Shown here in pieces: positions 42,375 to 53,031 of a stretch of 64,000 nt of DNA. The notes beneath the pieces were generated by a model. It saw nothing but the letters and a program-made list of their open reading frames with translations. It made no database searches and had not been told where the DNA came from. Source of the DNA: Stutzerimonas decontaminans (GTDB lineage: Bacteria; Pseudomonadota; Gammaproteobacteria; Pseudomonadales; Pseudomonadaceae). The position numbers and the translations under genes were made by a program. The DNA is taken from NCBI RefSeq assembly GCF_000661915.1, contig NZ_CP007509.1, positions 4,601,501-4,665,500 on the forward strand. Reading direction: 5' to 3'. Each line of letters starts with the position of its first letter. Within the stretch, counting starts at the first letter, position 1.

Positions 42375-43373
42375 TCAACCGACGATCACCTGGTTCTTGC
42401 CCAGGCGCTTGGCGGTGTACATCGCCGCATCGGCACGGGCGAAAACGCTGCTCAGCTCGGGGTCGCCGGCTTCGAGATAAGTCAGACCCAGGCTGGCGGT
42501 GACGCGGAAGCGCTCACCATTTTCAGCGGTAAACACCAGGCGCTCGATTTCACGCTGTAGGCGCTCGGCGATCTGCTCGGCCAGGTCCGGCTGGCAGCCC
42601 GGTAGCACAGCGGCGAATTCCTCACCTCCGATGCGCCCGAACAGGTCGCTCTGGCGCAGTACCGACGCACCACAACGAGCGACCTTCTGCAGCACCTGAT
42701 CGCCCATCTGGTGGCCGTGGGTGTCGTTGATGCGCTTGAAGTCATCGATGTCCAGCAGCAGGAAGGCCAGCGACGAGGCGAACTGCCGGGCCCGGTCGAA
42801 CTCAGTGCGGGCGCATTCGAAGAAATGCCGGCGGTTGCTGCTCTGGGTCAGTACATCGGTGGTCGCCAGGCGCTGCAACTCACCTTCGAGCTGCTTCTTC
42901 TCGGTGATGTCCTCGGCGATGCCGACGATGATCGGGCTCTGCCCGTTTTCACCCGGGCGACCGAGAAAGCACTTGTCGCTCAGCCAGCGCAACTGCCCGT
43001 CGCCACGGATGATGCGGTACTCGCGGGTTTCCACCGCCCCCTCATCGAGCACGGCGAGCATGCTCTTCTGCGCATATTCCACATCGTCAGGGTAGATCGC
43101 ATTGCGCCACTCACCGTAATCGGCCAGCAACAGGGCCGGTGAACGGCCAAAAATACGCTCGTAGGCCGGGCTGACATAAATCATCCGCTGCGCCTGCCAG
43201 TCAAAAGCCCAGAGCACCGCATTGACGCCGCCCAGCAGGGTGCTGAACAGCTGCTCGCGCTCGCCCAGACGGGCCGCTTCGGCGCGTGCGTGCATCAGCG
43301 CCAGCAACGTTTGCGCGTCGCCACCCGGAGGCATCCTCATACCCGAATCACTCTGATTGCTCGCCAGCCGCAT
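42375..43373 (-). CDS. PAS-GGDEF diguanylate cyclase
   Basis: About 332 residues, soluble. The PAS domain (about 45-165) contains LGGVNAVLWAFDWQAQRMIYVSPAYERIFG and ends in a PAC segment (EYRIIRGDGQLRWL). The GGDEF domain (about 175-330) has active site GGEEF with an I-site RQSD five residues before it, so an active, feedback-inhibited cyclase is expected. The ATG at 43373 has AGGAAG at good spacing; an ATG two codons upstream (43379) is too close to it. The ligand sensed is unknown. Confidence 0.87.
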   Translation of the reverse strand: MRLASNQSDSGMRMPPGGDAQTLLALMHARAEAARLGEREQLFSTLLGGVNAVLWAFDWQAQRMIYVSPAYERIFGRSPALLLADYGEWRNAIYPDDVEYAQKSMLAVLDEGAVETREYRIIRGDGQLRWLSDKCFLGRPGENGQSPIIVGIAEDITEKKQLEGELQRLATTDVLTQSSNRRHFFECARTEFDRARQFASSLAFLLLDIDDFKRINDTHGHQMGDQVLQKVARCGASVLRQSDLFGRIGGEEFAAVLPGCQPDLAEQIAERLQREIERLVFTAENGERFRVTASLGLTYLEAGDPELSSVFARADAAMYTAKRLGKNQVIVG

Positions 43374-43500
43374 TGCCATTCTTCCTGAAACGACCACCGC
43401 GCATGGCGGCAGCACTGCATAGTTTAGAGTGCAGTTCAGAAAGTCGGCGGGCCACAAAGTTCCGGGTCGGCGGGCTCCCGCAGCGCGAGCCGATCGAAGG

Positions 43501-44691
43501 TCAGGCAGGGACGACGGATGGGCGCAGCGAGTAGGTCCGCAGGTGCTCGGCAAATTCACGCAGCGAGTGGATACCGCTTGCCTCGGCCTCGTGCACCCAC
43601 TGCTTGATGGCGGCAAGCATGTCGTGGCCGTTTGAGCTGGTCCGGGTCCAGATCTGCTGCAGCGCCAGACGCTTCTCGTAGATCACCTTGAGCGCGTGAC
43701 TCTGCGCCAGCATGTCGTCGATATGCGCCTGCTGTTCCTGCTGCAGCAGACTCGGCTCGCGCGCCAGCAGACGCTTGGCGCGGCGCAGCTGATGACGTAC
43801 GGAGGCGTCAGCGCGACCCAGCTCCTGGCGCACCAGCGGCACGATCACCAGCTTGCGGTACTGCGCCATGATCTGGAAACGGTTGTTGAGGATCGCCATG
43901 GCGCTGTCCATGTCCAGCTGCTGCTTGCCCTCGATGCGATGGGCGATCGGCGCCGTGCGGTTGACCTTGGCCAGCCCGAGCAGGCTGAACAGGCGAATCC
44001 AGGCCCAGCCCATGTCGAACTCCCATTTGCGTACCGACAGCTTGGCCGAGTTCGGGTAGGTGTGATGGTTGTTGTGCAACTCTTCACCGCCGATGAGGAT
44101 GCCCCAGGGCACCAGGTTGGTCGCCGCGTCACGGCATTCGAAGTTGCGATAGCCGACCGCATGGCCAAGGCCGTTGACCACACCGGCGGCCCAGAACGGA
44201 ATCCAGATCATCTGCACCGCCCACACCGTCAGGCCGAGCGCACCGAACAGCGCCAGGTCGATCAGCAGCATGAGCACGATGCCGGTATTGGGAAAACGCG
44301 AATAGAGGTTGCGCTCGATCCAGTCGTCCGGGCAGTTCTTGCCGTAGATGCGCAGGGTTTCCTCGTTCTTCGCCTCTTCCATGTACAGCTCGGCGCCCTT
44401 GCGCACGACCGTGGCCAGGCCCTTGTGCACCGGGCTGTGCGGGTCATCAGGCGTTTCGCATTTGGCGTGGTGCTTGCGGTGGATGGCGGTCCACTCACGG
44501 GTGTTCATCGCCGTGGTCAGCCACAGCCAGAAACGGAAGAAGTGTTTGAGCGCCGGATTCAGCTCCAGCGAGCGGTGCGCCGAGTAACGGTGCAGGTAGA
44601 CCGTGACGCTGACGATGGTGACGTGAGTCAGAAGCAGCGTGGTCGCGATGAGTTGCCAGACCGAAAGGTCGAGTAAACCGGTGTGCCACAT
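43501..44691 (-). CDS. desB: Membrane acyl-CoA delta-9 desaturase, DesB type
   Basis: About 396 residues. Four membrane spans carry the three histidine boxes that bind the di-iron centre: HRYSAH, HRKHH and HNNHH. The C-terminal extension (residues about 260-395, ending in REFAEHLRTYSLRP) is typical of P. aeruginosa DesB, the inducible desaturase acting on acyl-CoAs from imported fatty acids. The ATG at 44691 (MWHTGLLDLSVWQL) matches DesB; an ATG six codons upstream (44709) is the alternative. No redox partner or desT-type regulator is adjacent. Confidence 0.9.
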   Translation of the reverse strand: MWHTGLLDLSVWQLIATTLLLTHVTIVSVTVYLHRYSAHRSLELNPALKHFFRFWLWLTTAMNTREWTAIHRKHHAKCETPDDPHSPVHKGLATVVRKGAELYMEEAKNEETLRIYGKNCPDDWIERNLYSRFPNTGIVLMLLIDLALFGALGLTVWAVQMIWIPFWAAGVVNGLGHAVGYRNFECRDAATNLVPWGILIGGEELHNNHHTYPNSAKLSVRKWEFDMGWAWIRLFSLLGLAKVNRTAPIAHRIEGKQQLDMDSAMAILNNRFQIMAQYRKLVIVPLVRQELGRADASVRHQLRRAKRLLAREPSLLQQEQQAHIDDMLAQSHALKVIYEKRLALQQIWTRTSSNGHDMLAAIKQWVHEAEASGIHSLREFAEHLRTYSLRPSVVPA

Positions 44692-45047
44692 AGTAACGGG
44701 GTGCCTCATGGGTTAGGCGCGCCGACGACCTCCGCCGATGCTGACCTTGGAGCAGACTAACACTCCGCCACAGGACGGCGAACACGACGGTTGACCGACC
44801 GTCGCAAATCTGGTGATTTTTTAACCAGTCTCGGCTGCAATCACTCGCCTGCAGCAAAGCCAGGCGAGGCAGGACGCCTGCTAATGCTCGCTATCAGCAA
44901 TGCTGGCATAGAGCTATCATTGCACCTTTTCCCTTCATGATGGATGCGGCCGATGTGTACGTCCTCCGCCGAGTATCGCGCAGAGCCTGCTGATCGTTGC
45001 GCACCGGCGATGCAGGCCGACTATCGCCGTAGACGGCCGGCCCGCCG
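44692..45047. other. Divergent intergenic region between desB and the first histidine kinase
   Basis: 356 bp without a credible gene. It must hold the promoters of desB (leftward) and of the 45-53 kb signalling operon (rightward). The only clear structure is the inverted repeat at 44785-44804. Confidence 0.6.
44785..44804. promoter_or_regulatory. Candidate desB operator, inverted repeat
   Basis: CGACGGT and ACCGTCG form a perfect 7-bp inverted repeat separated by TGACCG, about 94 bp upstream of the desB start. In P. aeruginosa desB is controlled by the TetR-type DesT through a palindrome in this position; the sequence here is not the remembered DesT site, so the assignment is tentative. Confidence 0.4.
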
Positions 45048-48008
45048 ATGAGCAACGTCGGCATCACGCCCCACTGGACCTTCGCGATCGGCAGCCTGCT
45101 GCTCGTGCTGCTGTTCGGCAGCCTGGCGTTCAATGATCACAGCGCCCGCGACGCCGCCTGGCAGCTGGAGATCCAGACCCATGGCGAGTTGCAGAGCCTG
45201 GCGCTGCGCAGTGCGCAGCTCAACCAGCAGCGTCAGGCCGATATGGTGGCCAACGCCCTGGCCGGCAACGCCGAAGTACTGCGCCAGATGCGGCGTATCG
45301 ATAGTGTGCTGCGCACCGGCGCGACGCTCGACGACGCGCGCGTGGAACTGGCGCGTCAGCGCCTGCATGCAGCCCTGACGCCCGCCTGGAACTCGATGCA
45401 GCGCCATCAGGGCATGCTGCTGCAGCTGTTCTGGGGCGACACTGGGCTCGCGCTGCTGCGCATGCAGCAGCCCGAACGTTTCGGCGACGCGCTGGCGGCA
45501 CGGCGGCCGATGCTGCAAAGAGCATTGCGCGACGGCGTCATGCAAACCGGTATCGAAGTCGATCCGCTCGGCGCCAGCAGCCGTGCAATCGTCCCGCTGT
45601 ATGCCGAGGATGACCGCAGCGGCGAGCTCATCGGCGCGCTGGAAGTGGGTTACAACGTGCTGCCGGACCTGAACGCCCTGGGCGATCAGCTGGCCGCCGG
45701 GCTGGCGCTGATCGTCAACCGCGCCGCCCTGCAAGCAGCGGGGCTGGAGGCGCCGAGCGGCGTTCAGCTGCACGCTGGCAGCGACTGGCAACTCACCAGC
45801 CACTCAGCGACGCAAATCCTGCAATGGGCACAGGCTGGCATGCTGCCGGAGCCGGAAAGCGGCATGGCGCTGCGCCTGCTGGTTGCTGGCGACCGCACCT
45901 ATATGCTCAACCAGAGCCCACTGCCAACCGACCATCAGGCCCAGCCTGCGCCCGCACTGCTGGCGGCGGCGCTGGTGTGGCGCGACATCAGTGCGATGGA
46001 GCGCGAGCATCATCAGGCCGAGCGCCGGCTACTGATCAAATGGAGCCTGGCCTGGTTGATTGCCGAAGTGTTGCTGCTGATGCTGGCGATCCTGCTGCAA
46101 CGTCGGCTCAGCGTGCAACAGCAGCACCAGCTGGCGCAGCAGCAGCAGGCCCGTCGGCGCCAACGTCTGCTCGACCGTGCGCAGAAGATCGCCAGCCTGC
46201 TACCCGGCGTGGTGTTCCAGCTCAAGCGCTTTGCCAATGGCCGCTATGCGTTCCTCTACGCCAGCGAAGGCGCCCGCGAACTGTACGGCATCGACCCGCA
46301 GCGGCTGCTGGACGACCCCTCGCAGGCATTGCTGCAGGTGCATCCGCAGGACTTGCCGCGGTTGAAGATCGCCCTGTTGCGCCTGGCTGTGTGCCCAGGG
46401 ACCGGCTCGGTCGAATTCCGCATCCAGCATCCGCAACGGGGCCTGCTCTGGGCCGAAGGGCGTGCGACCGCCGAACGAGGCCCCGACGGGTCGGTGCTTT
46501 GGCACGGCTTCGTAACCGAAATCAGCGAGTTGATGGAAGCCACCCGCGCACTGCAGAAGAGCGAGAGCCGCTTCCGCGCCATGGTCAGCAACCTGCCGGG
46601 CGTGGTCTACCGCTGCCGCAACGACGGGCGCCGGCGCATGAGCTATCTGAGCGACGGTATCGAACGGCTGACGGGCTATCCGGCAAGCGATTTCGTCGGC
46701 GACCGCGTGCGCAGCTTCGCCAGCCTGATCCATCCCGACGACGTGGAGCTGGCCCGACAGCATGCCGAACAGGACACCTTCGAGGGCATCTACCGGCTCA
46801 CCAATGCCGAAGGCCGAACGGTCTATGTGCGGGAGAAGGCGCGTGTGCTGCACGAACGCGACGATCCGGTCGGCTGGTGTGACGGTTTCATCTGGGACGT
46901 CACCGATCAGGCGTTGGCCAAACAAGAGATGCAGGAGCGCGAGCGCTACCTGAGCATGCTGATCGACAACGTGATCGACGCGATCATCATCATCGATGCG
47001 CGCGGCATCATCGAAACCTTCAACCACGCCGCCGAGCAGATCTTCGGCTACAGCAGCGAGGATGTGCTGGGTCGCAACCTGTCGATGCTCATGCCCGAGC
47101 CCGATCGCTCGGCCCACGACGGCTATCTGGACCATTACGCGCAGCGCGGCACCTCGCACGCGCTGGAACAGAACCGCGACCTGACCGCCCTGCGCCGCAA
47201 TGGTGAAACCTTCACCATCGAGCTACGCGTTTCGCAGATCAGCCACCATGGCGAGCGTAAGTTCATCGGCCTGGTACGCGACATCACCGAGCGCAAGCGC
47301 ATAGAGCGGATGAAGAGCGAGCTGGTGTCCATCGTCAGCCATGAACTGCGCACCCCGCTGACGTCTATCTCCGGGGCGCTCGGGCTGATCGTCGGCGGCG
47401 CGGCGGGCGAAACGTCGCCGAACATGCAAAAGATGCTCGACATCGCCCACCAGAACAGCCTGCGCCTGGGCCGGCTGGTGGACGACCTGCTGGACATGGA
47501 CAAGCTGGTCGCAGGGAAGATGGAGCTCAGCCTGCGTGAACACTCACTGCAGCTACAGCTGCAGCTGGCAGCCGATGCCAATCGGGGCTATGCCGCCAAA
47601 CACGGCGTCCATCTGGAACTGTCGCCCGTGCCGACCGTGCAGCTGACGGCAGACGACGACCGGTTGCAGCAGGTACTGGCCAATCTCATCTCCAATGCGG
47701 TCAAATTCTCACCCGCAGGCGGCACGGTGCTGCTGGGCGGCGAACGCCGCGGCGACTGGGTGCGCCTCTGGGTGCGCGACCAGGGCCCTGGCATTGCACC
47801 GGAGTTTCATGCGCGGATTTTCCAGAAGTTTTCCCAGGCCGATTCCTCCGACACCCGCCAAAAGGGCGGCACCGGGCTGGGCCTGGCCATCAGCAAGGAG
47901 CTGATCGAACACATGCACGGCCGGATCGGCTTCGACTCCGAACCCGGCCATGGCGCCTGCTTCTGGTGCGAACTGCCCCGTGCGCCGGCTGCGGCCGAAC
48001 TATCCTGA
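45048..48008 (+). CDS. Membrane sensor histidine kinase with periplasmic domain and three PAS domains
   Basis: 986 residues. Membrane helices at about 10-28 and 328-348 enclose a periplasmic sensor of about 300 residues, probably Cache-like. Then come a Gln-rich linker, three PAS/PAC domains (about 375-500, 505-625 and 630-750), a dimerisation domain with phosphoacceptor His765 (SIVSHELRTPL), and an ATPase domain ending GTGLGLAISKELIEHMHG. There is no receiver or HPt domain, so phosphate must pass to a separate protein, most simply the receiver encoded 48 bp downstream. The C-terminal 260 residues closely resemble those of the second kinase in this operon. The start has only a weak ribosome site. 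The signal is unknown. Confidence 0.88.
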   Translation: MSNVGITPHWTFAIGSLLLVLLFGSLAFNDHSARDAAWQLEIQTHGELQSLALRSAQLNQQRQADMVANALAGNAEVLRQMRRIDSVLRTGATLDDARVELARQRLHAALTPAWNSMQRHQGMLLQLFWGDTGLALLRMQQPERFGDALAARRPMLQRALRDGVMQTGIEVDPLGASSRAIVPLYAEDDRSGELIGALEVGYNVLPDLNALGDQLAAGLALIVNRAALQAAGLEAPSGVQLHAGSDWQLTSHSATQILQWAQAGMLPEPESGMALRLLVAGDRTYMLNQSPLPTDHQAQPAPALLAAALVWRDISAMEREHHQAERRLLIKWSLAWLIAEVLLLMLAILLQRRLSVQQQHQLAQQQQARRRQRLLDRAQKIASLLPGVVFQLKRFANGRYAFLYASEGARELYGIDPQRLLDDPSQALLQVHPQDLPRLKIALLRLAVCPGTGSVEFRIQHPQRGLLWAEGRATAERGPDGSVLWHGFVTEISELMEATRALQKSESRFRAMVSNLPGVVYRCRNDGRRRMSYLSDGIERLTGYPASDFVGDRVRSFASLIHPDDVELARQHAEQDTFEGIYRLTNAEGRTVYVREKARVLHERDDPVGWCDGFIWDVTDQALAKQEMQERERYLSMLIDNVIDAIIIIDARGIIETFNHAAEQIFGYSSEDVLGRNLSMLMPEPDRSAHDGYLDHYAQRGTSHALEQNRDLTALRRNGETFTIELRVSQISHHGERKFIGLVRDITERKRIERMKSELVSIVSHELRTPLTSISGALGLIVGGAAGETSPNMQKMLDIAHQNSLRLGRLVDDLLDMDKLVAGKMELSLREHSLQLQLQLAADANRGYAAKHGVHLELSPVPTVQLTADDDRLQQVLANLISNAVKFSPAGGTVLLGGERRGDWVRLWVRDQGPGIAPEFHARIFQKFSQADSSDTRQKGGTGLGLAISKELIEHMHGRIGFDSEPGHGACFWCELPRAPAAAELS

Positions 48009-48056
48009 TGCTTCCGCTGATGCGGACGCGCACGCAACCCGACCCACGGAGGCACA

Positions 48057-48443
48057 ATGGCCGAACTCCGGCGCATCCTGCACGTTGAAGACGACCCCTC
48101 CATCCAGGCGGTGACCAAACTGGCCCTGGAGGCCATCGGCGGTTACGAGGTGCTGTCCTGCTCCTCGGGTGCCCAGGCGCTGGAGGAGGTCGAAGCCTTC
48201 GCCCCGGATTTCATCCTGCTCGACGTGATGATGCCCGGCATGGACGGACCGCAGACGCTGCTCAACCTGCGCCAGCGCGTCGACCTGGAGCGGATTCCGG
48301 TAACATTCATGACGGCCAAGGTGCAGCCCGGCGAGATCGAACACCTGCGCAAGCTGGGCGCCCGTGATGTGATCATCAAGCCATTCGACCCGATGCAGCT
48401 GGCCGAGCAGATTCGCAGCATCTGGCTCGCTGACCGATACTAG
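48057..48443 (+). CDS. Stand-alone receiver (CheY-like) protein 1
   Basis: 128 residues consisting of a single receiver domain: acidic pair in LHVEDDPSIQ, phosphoacceptor Asp in ILLDVMMPG, Thr/Ser switch in TFMTAK, and Lys in IIKPFDP. It has no output domain. A GGAGG ribosome site lies 5 bases upstream. It follows kinase 1 and precedes kinase 2, and is clearly related to receiver 2 (50933-51319). It may relay phosphate to the HPt domain of the final gene. Confidence 0.92.
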   Translation: MAELRRILHVEDDPSIQAVTKLALEAIGGYEVLSCSSGAQALEEVEAFAPDFILLDVMMPGMDGPQTLLNLRQRVDLERIPVTFMTAKVQPGEIEHLRKLGARDVIIKPFDPMQLAEQIRSIWLADRY

Positions 48444-48520
48444 TCAGACTCAGTCGACGTCCCGCCGCGATATATCGTCAGGCCCGGGCGAAACTCACCG
48501 AATGAAACAAGGCATCGACG

Positions 48521-50932
48521 ATGGAGTTACCGCAAGCAAGTCCGGCGTCGCCACCCTCCATGGCGCCGCTGCGCGAGCTGTCACGCCTGGCAGCGTTGCT
48601 GCGCTACGAAATCCTCGATACGCCGGAAGAAGCGGTCTTCGACGACTTCACCGAACTGGCTGCGCATATCTGCGATACGCCCATCGCGCTGATCTCGCTG
48701 GTCGACGACCGGCGCCAGTGGTTCAAGAGCCGGGTCGGCCTCGAGGTTAGCGAGACCCCGCGGGAAATCTCCTTCTGCACCCACACCATCCTTGGTGAGG
48801 AGATCTTCGAAGTCCCCGACGCCCTGCAAGACCCGCGTTTTCGTCATAACCCGCTGGTGGTCGGCGATCCGCATATCCGCTTCTATGCCGGCACCCCGCT
48901 GACTTCGCCGGATGGACATAACCTCGGCACGCTGTGCGTGATCGACCGCAAGCCGCGCCAGCTCAGCGCCGAACAGCGCGACACCCTCGATCGACTCGGC
49001 CGCCAGGTAATCCGCCTGTTCGAACAGCACCTGCTGGCGCACCGTTACGCGGAGCAGGCCGCACTGCAACAGGCCATGCTCAACAGCGCTTCCAGCGCGG
49101 TGCTGGTGACCCGCCCTGACGGCATCATCACCAGCGTTAACCCGACTGCCGAACGCATGCTCGGCTACAGCGAACAGGACCTGATTGGCCATCCACTGAC
49201 CTCGGCGCTGTTCCGACCGGAGACACTACACCGGCGCGCCGCACTGCTTTCCAGCGAGCTGCAGAGGCCCATCGAGCCAAATTTTGCCGTGCTGACCGCG
49301 CCGCTGCACCGCGGCCGCCGAGAAATGTCCGAATGGCGCCTGCGCCACCAGAACGGCAGCGATGTACCGGTACTACTGGGGGTCACCGCGATTCACGACG
49401 AGCAGGAACTGCTGCGCGGTTATCTGATCAACGCCTACGATCTGGCCTATCAGGAGCAGCTGCAGCTGCGCCTGCAGCAGATCGCCGCACAGGTGCCCGG
49501 CATGCTCTTCCAGTTCCACTGGCGGGGCAACGGCAGCTCGTGCTTTCCCTACGTCAGCGAAGGGGTCGAGCAGATCTACGGACTGAGCCCGGGACAGTTG
49601 GCCGGAAGCTTCGCGCCGATCGTCGGCCGCGTGCATGCGCTCGACCGAAGCGCCCTGCTGTACAGCATTCGCAAAGCTGCCGCCGAGCTCACTCCCTGGC
49701 ACAGCGAGCACCGCGTCGACCATCCGCGCAAAGGGCTGATCTGGGTCGAGGCGCGCGCCACGCCGCTGCGCCAGTTCGACGGTTCGGTGCTCTGGCACGG
49801 GTTCGTCACCGACATCACGGCGCGCAAGGCCGAGCAGCTGGAACTCGACAAGCAGCAAGAAATGAACCGGCGCCTGCTCGAGGCGCTGAGCGAGGCGGTG
49901 ATCGCCTGTGACGCCGAAGGCAATCTGACTCTGTTCAACGAGAAGGCCAAGCAGTGGCATGGCGCCGATGCCGCGCCGGTCTCGCCGCCCGACTGGGCCA
50001 GTCATTACCAGCTGTACCATGCCGACGGCATCACGCCGCTGCAACCCGAAGAAATTCCGCTGCGCCGTGCCCTGCGCGGTGAGCATGTGATCGATCACGA
50101 GATGGTCCTGTTAAGTCAGGGCGAGCCGCGCCACGTGCTGTGCAACGCCGATCCGCTGTACACCTCCGATGGCCAGCTTCTGGGCGCCGTCGCCGTGCTG
50201 CACGACATCACCGAACGCAAACGCATCGAGCGTCTGCAGCGCGAGTTCATCTCCACCGTCAGCCATGAATTGCGTACGCCGCTGACCTCGATTACCGGCG
50301 CGCTGGCGCTGGTTTGCTCCAATGTCATGGGCGAGGTCCCCGCGCCGATGCGCGAACTGCTGGAAATTGCCCAGCAGAACAGCCAGCGGCTGAGTGCGCT
50401 GATCGATGACCTGCTGGACATGGACAAGCTGCACGCCGGCAAGATGCGCTTCGACCTGCTTCGCCAGCCGCTGCAACCCCAGCTGGAGCTGGCCCTGCGC
50501 AGCAATCGCAGTTACGCCGAACAACATGGCGTGGTGCTGCAGCTGGGCGCCTGCCCGGCAGCAACGGTGAATATCGACGCCATGCGCCTGCAGCAGGTGC
50601 TGAGCAATCTGCTGTCCAATGCGGCGAAGTTTTCCCCAGCCGGGGAGCGGGTCGATCTGTCGGCGACCCTGAGTGACGGCTGGGTTCGCGTCAGCGTCCG
50701 AGACCGCGGGCCGGGGATCTCCGCCGATTTCTGCGAGCGGGTATTCCAGAAGTTTGCCCAGGCCGACTCGTCCGACAGCCGCCAGCAAGGTGGCACGGGG
50801 CTTGGCCTGGCGATCAGCAAGGAGCTGATCGAGCGCATGGGTGGGCGCATCGGATTCGATTCCGAACCCGGCCAAGGCGCCTGCTTCTGGTTCGAGTTGC
50901 CCTGTGACGGGCTGGCCAAGGAGAGTCCATAG
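48521..50932 (+). CDS. Soluble GAF-PAS histidine kinase
   Basis: 803 residues without membrane segments. A GAF domain (about 20-165, LRYEILDTPEEAVFDDFTEL and FCTHTILGEEIFEVPDA) is followed by three PAS-like domains (about 185-305, 310-440 and 445-565). Then come the dimerisation domain with phosphoacceptor His582 (STVSHELRTPL) and an ATPase domain ending GTGLGLAISKELIERMGG. The C-terminal half is a paralogue of kinase 1, but the sensor part differs: cytoplasmic GAF instead of periplasmic sensing. It has no attached receiver. The start has AAGG 8 bases upstream, and the stop abuts the next gene. Confidence 0.9.
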   Translation: MELPQASPASPPSMAPLRELSRLAALLRYEILDTPEEAVFDDFTELAAHICDTPIALISLVDDRRQWFKSRVGLEVSETPREISFCTHTILGEEIFEVPDALQDPRFRHNPLVVGDPHIRFYAGTPLTSPDGHNLGTLCVIDRKPRQLSAEQRDTLDRLGRQVIRLFEQHLLAHRYAEQAALQQAMLNSASSAVLVTRPDGIITSVNPTAERMLGYSEQDLIGHPLTSALFRPETLHRRAALLSSELQRPIEPNFAVLTAPLHRGRREMSEWRLRHQNGSDVPVLLGVTAIHDEQELLRGYLINAYDLAYQEQLQLRLQQIAAQVPGMLFQFHWRGNGSSCFPYVSEGVEQIYGLSPGQLAGSFAPIVGRVHALDRSALLYSIRKAAAELTPWHSEHRVDHPRKGLIWVEARATPLRQFDGSVLWHGFVTDITARKAEQLELDKQQEMNRRLLEALSEAVIACDAEGNLTLFNEKAKQWHGADAAPVSPPDWASHYQLYHADGITPLQPEEIPLRRALRGEHVIDHEMVLLSQGEPRHVLCNADPLYTSDGQLLGAVAVLHDITERKRIERLQREFISTVSHELRTPLTSITGALALVCSNVMGEVPAPMRELLEIAQQNSQRLSALIDDLLDMDKLHAGKMRFDLLRQPLQPQLELALRSNRSYAEQHGVVLQLGACPAATVNIDAMRLQQVLSNLLSNAAKFSPAGERVDLSATLSDGWVRVSVRDRGPGISADFCERVFQKFAQADSSDSRQQGGTGLGLAISKELIERMGGRIGFDSEPGQGACFWFELPCDGLAKESP

Positions 50933-51319
50933 ATGAAACAGCTCAAACGCATTCTGCACGTCGAAGACGTACCCTCGATCCAGGTCGTGACGCGCATCGC
51001 GCTGGAGAAGATCGGCGGCTTCGAGGTGCTCAGCTGTCCATCTGGCCAGGCGGCGCTGGACCAGGTGCAGGCCTTCGCCCCGGACCTGATCCTGCTCGAC
51101 GTGATGCTGCCGCAGATGGACGGCATCGAACTCGTTCGCCAGCTCGGTCAACTGATTGACCTGCAGCAGATACCCGTGGTGTTTCTCACCGGCCACCTGC
51201 AGCCCGAGCGGCTGCATGAACTGCGTCAGCTTGGCGTGCGTCAGGTGCTGGGCAAACCGTTCGACCCGCTCCAGCTGGCCGCCCAGCTGCAGAAGGTATG
51301 GGAGGCCGAGCATGGATGA
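50933..51319 (+). CDS. Stand-alone receiver (CheY-like) protein 2
   Basis: 128 residues, a single receiver domain: LHVEDVPSIQ (one acidic residue of the usual triplet replaced by Val), phosphoacceptor Asp in ILLDVMLPQ, switch Thr in FLTGHL, and Lys in GKPFDP. It is strongly similar in sequence and length to receiver 1. It begins immediately after kinase 2 and overlaps the start of the HPt-REC-REC-GGDEF gene by 8 bp, so the two are translationally coupled. Confidence 0.92.
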   Translation: MKQLKRILHVEDVPSIQVVTRIALEKIGGFEVLSCPSGQAALDQVQAFAPDLILLDVMLPQMDGIELVRQLGQLIDLQQIPVVFLTGHLQPERLHELRQLGVRQVLGKPFDPLQLAAQLQKVWEAEHG

Positions 51320-52979
51320 CCAGGCGCGAATTGCGCTGCAGAAACAGCTGGCCCAGCTGGAACAACAGTTCGGCGAGCGCCTGCAGGGCGACCTGGCAGA
51401 GCTCGGCATGCTGGCCGCCGAGCTGCAGCACAACCGCGCGACCGGCCGCCGGCGCCAGCTGATGCTCAGCATCCGCGAGCGCCTGCACCGGCTCGCTGGG
51501 GCCGCCGGCACCTTCGGCTTCGCCAAGCTTGGCGAACGCGCCAGACAGCTCGAACAGCGCGCCGACCGCTGGCTGGATTCAGCAAAACCCGGCAGTCGGG
51601 CAGCGGAAGCCTTCGCCCGTGCGTTGCAGCAGCTGGCCGGCCAGACGCCCGGCCAGGAGCGCGCCGCGGCGGAGTTGCCCGACCATCACGACGAACCAGC
51701 GCCCGGCTGCCGCATCTACCTGCTGGAAGCCGATCCAGCCGCCGCTTCCAACATGGCGTTGACCCTGCGCAACTTCGGCTATCTGGTCAGCCAGTGGCAG
51801 GATTTCGCCGCGCTGCAGGATGCCGTGGCAGACGAGCCGCCCGATGCGCTGATCGCCAGTGTGCAGCACGACAGCGAGCTCGAAGCACTCGCCGCGTTGC
51901 AGCAGGGCCTCGAGCATCCACTGCCATTGCTGGTCATTCACGAACGCATCGATTTCACCAGCCAGCTGGCCGCGGTACGCGCCGGCGCGCAGGGCTTTTT
52001 CACCCGCCCACTGGACATCACGCAACTGGAAAACAGCCTTGAGCGCTGCCTCGACCGCCAGCAGGGCGAGCCTTTCCGGGTGCTTATCGTCGATGACGAT
52101 GCCGAACTCGCCGCACGCTACAGCCTGGTGCTGCGTAATGCGCAGATGCAGGTGCAGATCCTCACCGAGCCGACCCGCGTGCTGGAGACGATGCACAGCT
52201 TCAACCCCGAAGTGCTGTTGCTGGACGTGAACATGCCGGAGTGCTCGGGGCCGGAGCTGGCGCAGATGATCCGCCTGCATGATGAATGGCTGCGAGTGAC
52301 GATCATCTATCTTTCCGCCGAGACCGATACCCACCGGCAGATGGCGGCGCTGCTCAAGGCCGGCGACGATTTCATCACCAAGCCGATCAGCGACAATGCA
52401 TTGGTCGCTGCGGTGTATTCACATGCCCAACGCGCCCGCTCACTGAGCACGGCCCTGGCGCGCGACAGCCTGACCGGCCTGCTCAAGCACGCCGACATCA
52501 AGGAGCAGCTGGCCCTGGAAGTGCAACGGGCAACGCGCAGCGGCAAGCCGGCCAGCGTGGTGATGCTCGACCTCGACCACTTCAAGCGCGTCAATGACAC
52601 CTACGGCCATGCCGCTGGCGACAATGTGATCCGCGCCTTGGCCAACCTGCTGCGCCAGCGTCTGCGTCGTATCGACAGCCTCGGTCGCTACGGCGGCGAG
52701 GAATTCGTCGCGGTGCTGCCGGAATGCACGGCGCTACAGGCACAGCGCATTTTCGACGAGATCCGCGTGCGCTTTGCTGCGTTGAACTTCAATGGTGGCG
52801 ACGGTGAGGAGTTCTACGTGACCTTCAGTGCCGGCATCTGCCAGACCGATGGCCACACCGCCTCGGGCGTGCTGCTGGAACTTGCCGATCAGGCGCTGTA
52901 TGCGGCCAAGCACAAGGGCCGCAATCAGGTGCAGATCGCTGCCGCTGTCAAAGAAGCTCAGCGGGCAAACCGACGCTGA
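51312..52979 (+). CDS. HPt-REC-REC-GGDEF response regulator/diguanylate cyclase
   Basis: 555 residues in four parts. (1) An HPt domain (about 10-110) with candidate phosphoacceptor His59 in LHRLAGAAGTFGF. (2) A degenerate receiver (about 130-250): the usual Asp position reads IASVQHD and the Lys position reads FFTRPLD. (3) An intact receiver (about 255-375): LIVDDDAEL, LLLDVNMPE and FITKPIS. (4) A GGDEF domain with active site GGEEF and I-site RRID. It should make c-di-GMP under control of phosphorylation. It carries the only HPt domain in the operon, so it is the natural end of a relay from the two kinases. The start at 51312 overlaps receiver 2. Confidence 0.9.
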   Translation: MDDQARIALQKQLAQLEQQFGERLQGDLAELGMLAAELQHNRATGRRRQLMLSIRERLHRLAGAAGTFGFAKLGERARQLEQRADRWLDSAKPGSRAAEAFARALQQLAGQTPGQERAAAELPDHHDEPAPGCRIYLLEADPAAASNMALTLRNFGYLVSQWQDFAALQDAVADEPPDALIASVQHDSELEALAALQQGLEHPLPLLVIHERIDFTSQLAAVRAGAQGFFTRPLDITQLENSLERCLDRQQGEPFRVLIVDDDAELAARYSLVLRNAQMQVQILTEPTRVLETMHSFNPEVLLLDVNMPECSGPELAQMIRLHDEWLRVTIIYLSAETDTHRQMAALLKAGDDFITKPISDNALVAAVYSHAQRARSLSTALARDSLTGLLKHADIKEQLALEVQRATRSGKPASVVMLDLDHFKRVNDTYGHAAGDNVIRALANLLRQRLRRIDSLGRYGGEEFVAVLPECTALQAQRIFDEIRVRFAALNFNGGDGEEFYVTFSAGICQTDGHTASGVLLELADQALYAAKHKGRNQVQIAAAVKEAQRANRR

Positions 52980-52988
52980 CAGTAAAGC

Positions 52989-53019
52989 CGGCGGCAGCGA
53001 TGGTTAGGCGCCGCCGCCG
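52989..53019. terminator. Stem-loop between convergent cyclase and kauB genes
   Basis: A perfect 7-bp GC stem (CGGCGGC / GCCGCCG) in the 52-bp gap between the two convergent stops. No U-tract on either side; termination is plausible from position only. Confidence 0.45.
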
Positions 53020-53031
53020 ACTGTGTATCCG

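What the first reader, a model, noticed from the sequence alone, without database searches (positions are those of the whole stretch)
45048..52979. Putative split phosphorelay operon: two kinases, two free receivers, one HPt-REC-REC-GGDEF cyclase
Neither kinase has a receiver or HPt domain. Each is followed by a free CheY-like receiver, and the last gene brings the only HPt domain, joined to two receivers and a GGDEF domain. The set matches an unfused His-Asp-His-Asp relay in which a periplasmic sensor and a cytoplasmic GAF/PAS sensor converge on c-di-GMP synthesis. Gene overlaps (0 bp and 8 bp) support co-expression. This is the best candidate here for an uncharacterised system.
Basis: partly seen in the sequence, partly recalled or inferred. 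Interest (0 to 1): 0.72.

Follow-up and report, generated by a model that had tools for sequence, protein, structure and literature searches.

The report
Unfused multi-kinase phosphorelay to c-di-GMP
Two sensor kinases, two free-floating carrier proteins and one enzyme lie in a row and look like a signal chain that turns outside cues into the bacterial messenger c-di-GMP; its core is widespread but we found no test of it in print.

Summary
The five-gene observation is correct: K1 (dCache, PAS, kinase), R1, K2 (GAF, PAS, kinase), R2 and D (HPt-REC-REC-GGDEF) lie on one strand at 45048-52979 with the stated 0-bp and 8-bp junctions. It is not strain-specific: R-K2-R-D is intact in 38 of 38 Stutzerimonas loci fetched, K1 in 30 of 38. 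The core, one free receiver beside D, extends to other Pseudomonas, Halopseudomonas and more distant relatives, with changing kinases in front. HPt His59 is kept in 120 of 120 D homologues. Free receivers lack the aromatic 'switch' residue (147 of 148 aliphatic); D's live receiver has it (120 of 121). In this genome that difference separates output receivers from many hybrid-kinase receivers. Best reading, not biochemically shown: kinases > free receiver > HPt > REC2 of a PleD-like cyclase. Refinements: REC1 is dead in Stutzerimonas; R1 and R2 are a lineage-specific duplication and R2 changed its partner-facing surface; R1 persists where K1 is missing. The cyclase architecture was described in Halomonas in 2018 as uncharacterised (PMC5907407). 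New variant of a known kind; direct kinase-to-REC2 transfer remains possible.

The parts
45048..48008 (+). K1: membrane sensor kinase, N-terminal dCache region, PAS repeats, HisKA (His765) and HATPase_c; no REC or HPt
   Evidence: dCache-like fold by model (pLDDT 91.8) and Foldseek
48057..48443 (+). R1: free receiver, Asp56, Thr86, Lys108, Val105 at the switch position; keeps the ancestral residues
48521..50932 (+). K2: GAF, PAS repeats, HisKA (His582), HATPase_c; no REC or HPt
50933..51319 (+). R2: free receiver, Asp56, Val at the switch position; long-branch Stutzerimonas duplicate with Val13 in place of Asp13
51312..52979 (+). D: HPt-REC1(dead)-REC2-GGDEF diguanylate cyclase
51318..51638 (+). 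HPt four-helix bundle of D; His59 codon 51486-51488
51711..52049 (+). REC1 of D, pseudo-receiver in Stutzerimonas (Ser183, Arg232)
52077..52427 (+). REC2 of D, intact (Asp305 codon 52224-52226, Lys357), aromatic switch residue Phe354
52461..52934 (+). GGDEF domain, GGEEF active site and RxxD inhibitory site

Best explanation
An unfused, multi-input phosphorelay that makes c-di-GMP. K1 (periplasmic dCache ligand) and K2 (cytoplasmic GAF/PAS signal) autophosphorylate and hand phosphate to free single-domain receivers that act as carriers, not outputs. The receivers pass it to His59 of the HPt domain of D, which passes it to Asp305 of REC2. REC2 then switches the cyclase on, probably by PleD-like dimerisation, and the RxxD site limits it by product feedback. 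REC1 is a structural pseudo-receiver in Stutzerimonas. Shown by sequence: the gene set, intact residues at every step, conservation, the two classes of receiver, the duplication and the loss of REC1's acceptor. Inferred: every phosphotransfer step, its direction and the activation of D.
For: A free REC lies directly upstream of D in 38/38 Stutzerimonas, 20/20 g15 (Pseudomonas), 21/22 g5 (Halopseudomonas) and 23/40 more distant loci (26/40 counting either side). HPt His 120/120, REC2 Asp 118/120, GGEEF acids and RxxD 120/120. Free receivers (those scoring over 80 bits to R1 or R2) have an aliphatic residue three before the conserved Lys in 147/148, one gap; D-REC2 has Phe/Tyr in 120/121. Same-genome control: receivers outside kinases Phe/Tyr 44/45, intact hybrid-kinase receivers 10/27, Fisher p 9e-9. 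This fits the intermediate-versus-terminal receiver idea in PMC9981736 (sections 11 and 18 read). D-like cyclases without the HPt His have no neighbouring free receiver: 0 of 12 informative, against 35 of 59 with the His. D models as a four-helix HPt with His59 in helix 2, two REC folds and GGDEF (pLDDT 89.8); top full-length solved matches are PleD. K1 and K2 cores are 61% identical and R1-R2 58%, while R1-REC2 is 29%. A Halomonas record puts a CheA-type kinase (Hpt, H-kinase_dim, HATPase_c, CheW, REC) and a 118-aa receiver just before the D homologue.
Against: No phosphotransfer measured. The HPt domain scores only just over its cut-off. The His-loss comparison rests on about two independent losses (11 of the 12 are one GcbA-like clade). 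D homologues were chosen by full-length E-value, which favours HPt-bearing ones. A non-aromatic switch residue is not proof: the nearest solved relative, 4ja2 (deposited as 'Response regulator'), also has Val there, 10 of 27 hybrid receivers are aromatic, and the 4 other single-domain receivers of the genome are mixed (2 Tyr, 1 Trp, 1 Val). The FATGUY motif reported for several intermediate receivers lacks its Tyr here. Mirror-tree correlations did not favour R-HPt over R-REC2 (partial 0.13 against 0.32, 64 loci). 14 of 40 distant D homologues have no receiver directly beside them, and 9 of 40 none in the fetched stretch. The Halomonas small receiver gave no phmmer match to R1 or R2.
Confidence: 0.6

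Rival explanations
1. Direct two-component control: K1 and K2 phosphorylate REC2 of D directly, while R1 and R2 are phosphate sinks or competitors that tune the signal, and the HPt takes phosphate from other (hybrid) kinases.
For: REC2 is a complete receiver with the aromatic switch residue of output receivers. A hybrid-type kinase (K3) follows D in 28 of 38 Stutzerimonas loci and other hybrids exist in the genome. Mirror-tree signal is stronger for R-REC2 than R-HPt.
Against: R1 and REC2 share only 29% and differ along helix 1, the helix that kinases read (recalled). The R-D adjacency is more constant in the family than any kinase. K3 is absent from the window and was not seen within about 3 kb after D in 10 of 38 other loci.
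Confidence: 0.22
2. Reverse flow: the HPt drains phosphate from REC2 back to the free receivers, so the kinases act as net phosphatases of D at rest.
For: HPt steps are reversible (general knowledge); no feature tested here excludes it.
Against: No sequence feature argues for a one-way drain; an activating kinase for D would be missing from the operon.
Confidence: 0.08
3. R1 and R2 are CheY-like outputs that bind other targets, so the operon has three separate outputs and no relay.
For: Both are single-domain receivers like CheY.
Against: They lack the aromatic switch residue in 147 of 148 orthologues, unlike 44 of 45 receivers outside kinases in the same genome, and they stay beside D. Other neighbouring genes were not annotated in the relatives.
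Confidence: 0.08

Closest known systems
Diguanylate cyclase of chemosensory cluster 2, Halomonas titanicae KHS3 (PMC5907407; sections 24 and 27 and passages read)
   Same: HPt followed by two receivers and GGDEF, I-site present, a relay proposed; a small receiver gene (CheY2) in the cluster. In Halomonas sp. PA16-9 a CheA-type kinase, a small receiver and the D homologue follow each other.
   Different: There the input is one chemoreceptor-CheA2 array and both receivers are intact. Here the inputs are two ordinary sensor kinases, there are two free receivers and REC1 is dead.
PleD of Caulobacter (REC-REC-GGDEF; solved structures 1w25, 2wb4)
   Same: Two receivers before GGDEF, one of them dead; best full-length fold match.
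   Different: PleD has no HPt (stated in PMC5907407). In PleD the live receiver comes first and the pseudo-receiver second (order in a passage of PMC12632262); here it is reversed. Below the NCBIfam PleD cut-off (190.2 of 474 bits).
GcbA-type cyclases of Pseudomonas (GcbA has two REC domains, passage of PMC9355167; the label for the paralogue is inferred, not tested against GcbA)
   Same: Paralogue at G000:C1:654554-656128 is 39% identical over residues 14-541, with a helical-looking N-terminal region.
   Different: No Pfam HPt match up to E 1, His replaced, no neighbouring free receiver in 11 of 11.
MrrA hub of Caulobacter (PMC5964349; abstract and outline seen) and Spo0F (passage in PMC9981736)
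   Same: A single-domain receiver that collects phosphate from several kinases and passes it to a phosphotransferase.
   Different: MrrA's partner PhyK is a separate protein working as phosphotransferase (abstract); here the HPt is fused to the output, and receiver and cyclase genes overlap.

Membership tests
H. titanicae cluster-2 type cyclase (HPt-REC-REC-GGDEF) | Domain order HPt, REC, REC, GGDEF with conserved His | tested here: met
H. titanicae cluster-2 type cyclase (HPt-REC-REC-GGDEF) | Phosphorylatable residues in both receivers | tested here: not met
   REC1 site Ser/Gly/Ala in 38 of 38 Stutzerimonas loci; Ser183 in the window
H. titanicae cluster-2 type cyclase (HPt-REC-REC-GGDEF) | Encoded with chemoreceptor, CheA and CheW genes | tested here: not met
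   The operon's other genes are HisKA sensor kinases and free receivers
PleD | REC-REC-GGDEF without HPt, NCBIfam cut-off reached | tested here: not met
   HPt present; 190.2 bits against cut-off 474
Multistep phosphorelay | Intact His, Asp, His, Asp acceptors in order | tested here: met
   K1 His765, K2 His582, R1/R2 Asp56, D His59, D Asp305
Multistep phosphorelay | Phosphate actually moves along the chain | not testable with these tools
   needs phosphotransfer assay
Intermediate (shuttle) single-domain receiver | No output domain and no aromatic switch residue | tested here: met
Intermediate (shuttle) single-domain receiver | FATGUY motif reported for MrrA, SdrG, Sma0114, CckA-Rec | tested here: not met
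   R1 FMTAKV and R2 FLTGHL have no Tyr there; no Tyr among the residues listed three after the Thr; motif from PMC9981736 section 18
GcbA-type cyclase | REC-REC-GGDEF without HPt | tested here: not met
   D has HPt over cut-off; the GcbA-like paralogue has none

The most novel reading that the evidence does not exclude
In Stutzerimonas the free receiver was duplicated, the copy beside the cyclase (R2) was rewired on its partner-facing helix in every genome examined, and the cyclase's own first receiver died. R2 may have become a detached regulatory receiver of D, doing in trans what REC1 once did in cis, while R1 alone carries phosphate from the kinases. The operon would then be a relay with a built-in second gate.
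Probability: 0.12. Interest if true: 0.65.

Novelty: new variant of a known kind. Interest (0 to 1): 0.46.

Why it matters
It points to a widespread signalling module for which we found no experiment: a fixed receiver-HPt-cyclase core into which bacteria plug different sensors (up to four histidine kinases upstream in the loci fetched, or a CheA-type chemosensory kinase in Halomonas). If the relay is real, it is a compact, naturally unfused test bed for how single-domain receivers pool signals, and for whether a non-aromatic switch position marks carrier receivers. The Stutzerimonas duplication gives a natural before-and-after comparison.

Tried and rejected
A simple tandem duplication of whole kinase-receiver pairs: the receivers are a Stutzerimonas duplicate, but the kinase-core tree (94 rows) does not join K1 and K2 as sisters; its backbone is unresolved and its bootstrap had not settled.

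Private pairs K1-R1 and K2-R2: weakened because R1 stays in all 8 loci where K1 was not found. K2 shows some derived residues on its phosphoacceptor helices, suggestive only.

Coupling of receiver duplication with REC1 death: two Pseudomonas records (L245, L262) have a second free receiver with REC1 Asp kept, so the two events need not go together.

Mirror-tree test for R-HPt co-evolution: not decisive and slightly against. Promoter and terminator scan: 1 promoter-like site against 0.8 expected and 2 terminator-like sites against 4.3 expected; no information.

The switch-residue control: first passes were incomplete or read some minus-strand loci wrongly; one search replaces them. It covers 79 of the genome's 93 receiver matches: 45 outside kinases, 27 intact hybrid, 2 degenerate hybrid (dropped), 4 single-domain and 1 ChpA (kept apart). 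Two of the 17 non-aromatic hybrid rows (1086860, 388741) lack the Lys-Pro pair and may be misaligned; without them the hybrid figure is 10 of 25 (my subtraction).

Literature: searches found the 2018 Halomonas description and no experimental study of this architecture in the listings; most subscription papers are not held.

Full report
OBSERVATION. Pfam gives K1 = dCache_3, PAS, HisKA, HATPase_c; R1 = one REC; K2 = GAF, PAS, HisKA, HATPase_c; R2 = one REC; D = HPt (27.6 bits, cut-off 24.6), REC in two stretches, GGDEF. Neither kinase has REC or HPt. The acceptor residues are present: K1 His765, K2 His582, R1 and R2 Asp56, D His59, D Asp305; D also has GGEEF and RxxD. One correction: D's first receiver has Ser183 at the Asp site and Arg232 at the Lys site. 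One caution: the HPt score is marginal, and in the precomputed Pfam column I count HPt in only 31 of the 120 close homologues listed.

CONTEXT. The genome is about 4.8 Mb. Named relatives place it in Stutzerimonas; the closest named D is from P. songnenensis, 91% identical (which may leave out the window's own record). Upstream, divergent, is a desaturase-like gene and then a PAS-GGDEF gene; downstream, a convergent aldehyde dehydrogenase gene ends 52 bp after D (the enzyme name is recalled from its sequence).

CONSERVATION. D-like proteins at E <= 1e-120 occur in 105 of 398 genomes of the family sample and in 3 of 19 genera. With flanks I fetched 38 of the 51 Stutzerimonas genomes with a hit (the window's own not among the 38), 20 of 33 matches in g15 and 22 of 24 in g5. 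In the order and class samples, hits at E <= 1e-100 were found in 23 of 341 and 29 of 369 genomes; 40 of the 45 outside the family were fetched with flanks. Architecture was read with the window's own domains as phmmer queries, not with Pfam. In Stutzerimonas the order is K1-R-K2-R-D in 30 of 38 and R-K2-R-D in 38 of 38. A free receiver lies directly upstream of D in 38/38, 20/20, 21/22 and 23/40 loci of the four groups; the one g5 miss (L116) has a kinase directly before D and only 1.2 kb upstream on its contig. The number of kinases found in the same-strand run before D is 0-4 in g15, 1-3 in g5 and 0-3 in the distant set, where 18 of 40 have none. Among the 80 named loci, 72 of 77 testable have the receiver directly upstream.

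KEY RESIDUES. Across 120 D homologues the HPt His is invariant (120), REC2 Asp is 118, the GGEEF acids and RxxD are 120. The homologues were picked by full-length E-value, so HPt-less relatives are under-represented. The REC1 Asp is absent in 38/38 Stutzerimonas but present in 20/20 g15, 21/22 g5 and 28/40 others, so it was most simply lost in the Stutzerimonas lineage. A paralogue in the same genome, 39% identical, keeps two RECs and GGDEF but has no Pfam HPt match. In one search I looked at 72 rows: 59 carry the His and 35 of these have a free receiver beside D; 13 lack it and none has one. Of the 13, 11 are this GcbA-like clade, one is L309 and one (L156) is cut off by its contig end, so 12 are informative and stand for about two independent losses. 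Many rows are the same places as.

TWO CLASSES OF RECEIVER. In terminal receivers an aromatic residue on strand 5 couples phosphorylation to output; intermediate receivers can do without it (PMC9981736, sections 11 and 18; the place three before the Lys is recalled from CheY). Free receivers scoring over 80 bits to R1 or R2 have Val, Leu, Ile or Met there in 147 of 148 (one gap), whereas D-REC2 has Phe or Tyr in 120 of 121. As a control I took 79 of the 93 receiver matches of this genome and sorted them by whether a HATPase_c lies in the same frame: receivers outside kinases have Phe/Tyr in 44 of 45, intact hybrid-kinase receivers in 10 of 27 (Fisher p 9e-9), the four other single-domain receivers are 2 Tyr, 1 Trp, 1 Val. 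This is the strongest sequence argument that R1 and R2 are carriers and REC2 the terminal receiver. It is not absolute: the nearest solved relative (4ja2) also has Val there, and the FATGUY Tyr is missing.

EVOLUTION OF THE STUTZERIMONAS FORM. In a tree of 107 of the 150 receivers, R1 and R2 of Stutzerimonas form one clade (99/90), with R2 on a long, fully supported branch (length 1.0; 100/100); the R1 rows group only weakly (82/47) but on short branches (few columns). R2-specific changes include Asp13 to Val in 38/38, next to the acidic pair, and several helix-1 positions, where R1 mostly keeps the Pseudomonas residue. The equivalent acidic position is thought to help kinase recognition in CckA (PMC9981736). 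Two Pseudomonas records have a separate second free receiver with REC1 Asp kept. Kinase cores in these arrays are related and each Stutzerimonas kinase is monophyletic, but the deeper order is unresolved.

STRUCTURE. D models well (pLDDT 89.8): helices 3-40, 44-68 (with His59), 71-89 and 95-109 form the HPt region, then two REC folds and GGDEF; PleD gives the top solved matches, at low whole-chain TM-score (0.29-0.31 by query length) because domain arrangement differs. K1 residues 1-363 model as a mixed alpha/beta domain between two long helices (pLDDT 91.8), matching dCache-type domains of TlpQ, McpH, DctB and Mlp24 with modest TM-scores. The ligand is unknown.

MECHANISM. Best-supported: K1 and K2 > free receiver(s) > HPt His59 > REC2 Asp305 > active cyclase. 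The gene set, residues and conservation are shown; the transfers, their direction and the activation are inferred. The main rival, direct transfer from the kinases to REC2 with R1 and R2 as sinks, is not excluded; mirror-tree correlations were slightly in its favour.

COMPARISON. The nearest described protein is the cluster-2 cyclase of Halomonas titanicae, with the same domain order, for which a relay was proposed and which was called uncharacterised in 2018 (PMC5907407). A Halomonas plasmid record shows a CheA-type kinase with a C-terminal receiver, then a 118-aa receiver (Pfam REC, 60 bits), then the D homologue in two frames. Read by eye, that small receiver has Cys at the switch place; it gave no phmmer match to R1 or R2. 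The common element may thus be a receiver-HPt-cyclase core that accepts either histidine kinases or a chemosensory array. MrrA is a precedent for a receiver hub (PMC5964349, abstract). No study of this operon showed up in the searches.

VERDICT. Real, conserved beyond the strain and genus, most likely a relay, and a new variant of a known kind.

Noticed in passing
window 52980-53031; L211 11767-14643: A kinase of about 958 aa (hybrid, HK-REC-REC, where read in L211) follows D in 28 of 38 Stutzerimonas loci but is absent here, where the aldehyde dehydrogenase follows directly; in L211 that gene begins about 7 kb after D.
   Followed up: partly
G000:C1:654554-656128 (L120 9546-11249, - strand): GcbA-like paralogue with a helical-looking N-terminal region in the HPt place but no His and no HPt match: perhaps a dead HPt.
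   Followed up: partly
L245 6030-9987 and L262 6030-9987: Two Pseudomonas records have a second free receiver between kinases and a K2-like kinase fused to two receivers.
   Followed up: partly
L281 9983-11635 and L381 6944-8625: D homologue split over two reading frames (HPt apart from the rest in L281, a metagenome assembly); frameshift or real split not settled.
   Followed up: no
window 42375-43616 (- strand): A PAS-GGDEF cyclase gene lies near the operon, and a GGDEF gene lies upstream on the opposite strand in most Stutzerimonas loci listed.
   Followed up: no
window 43501-44709 (- strand): Fatty-acid-desaturase protein with a C-terminal match to a transposase domain (DDE_Tnp_ISL3, 41.5 bits).
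   Followed up: no
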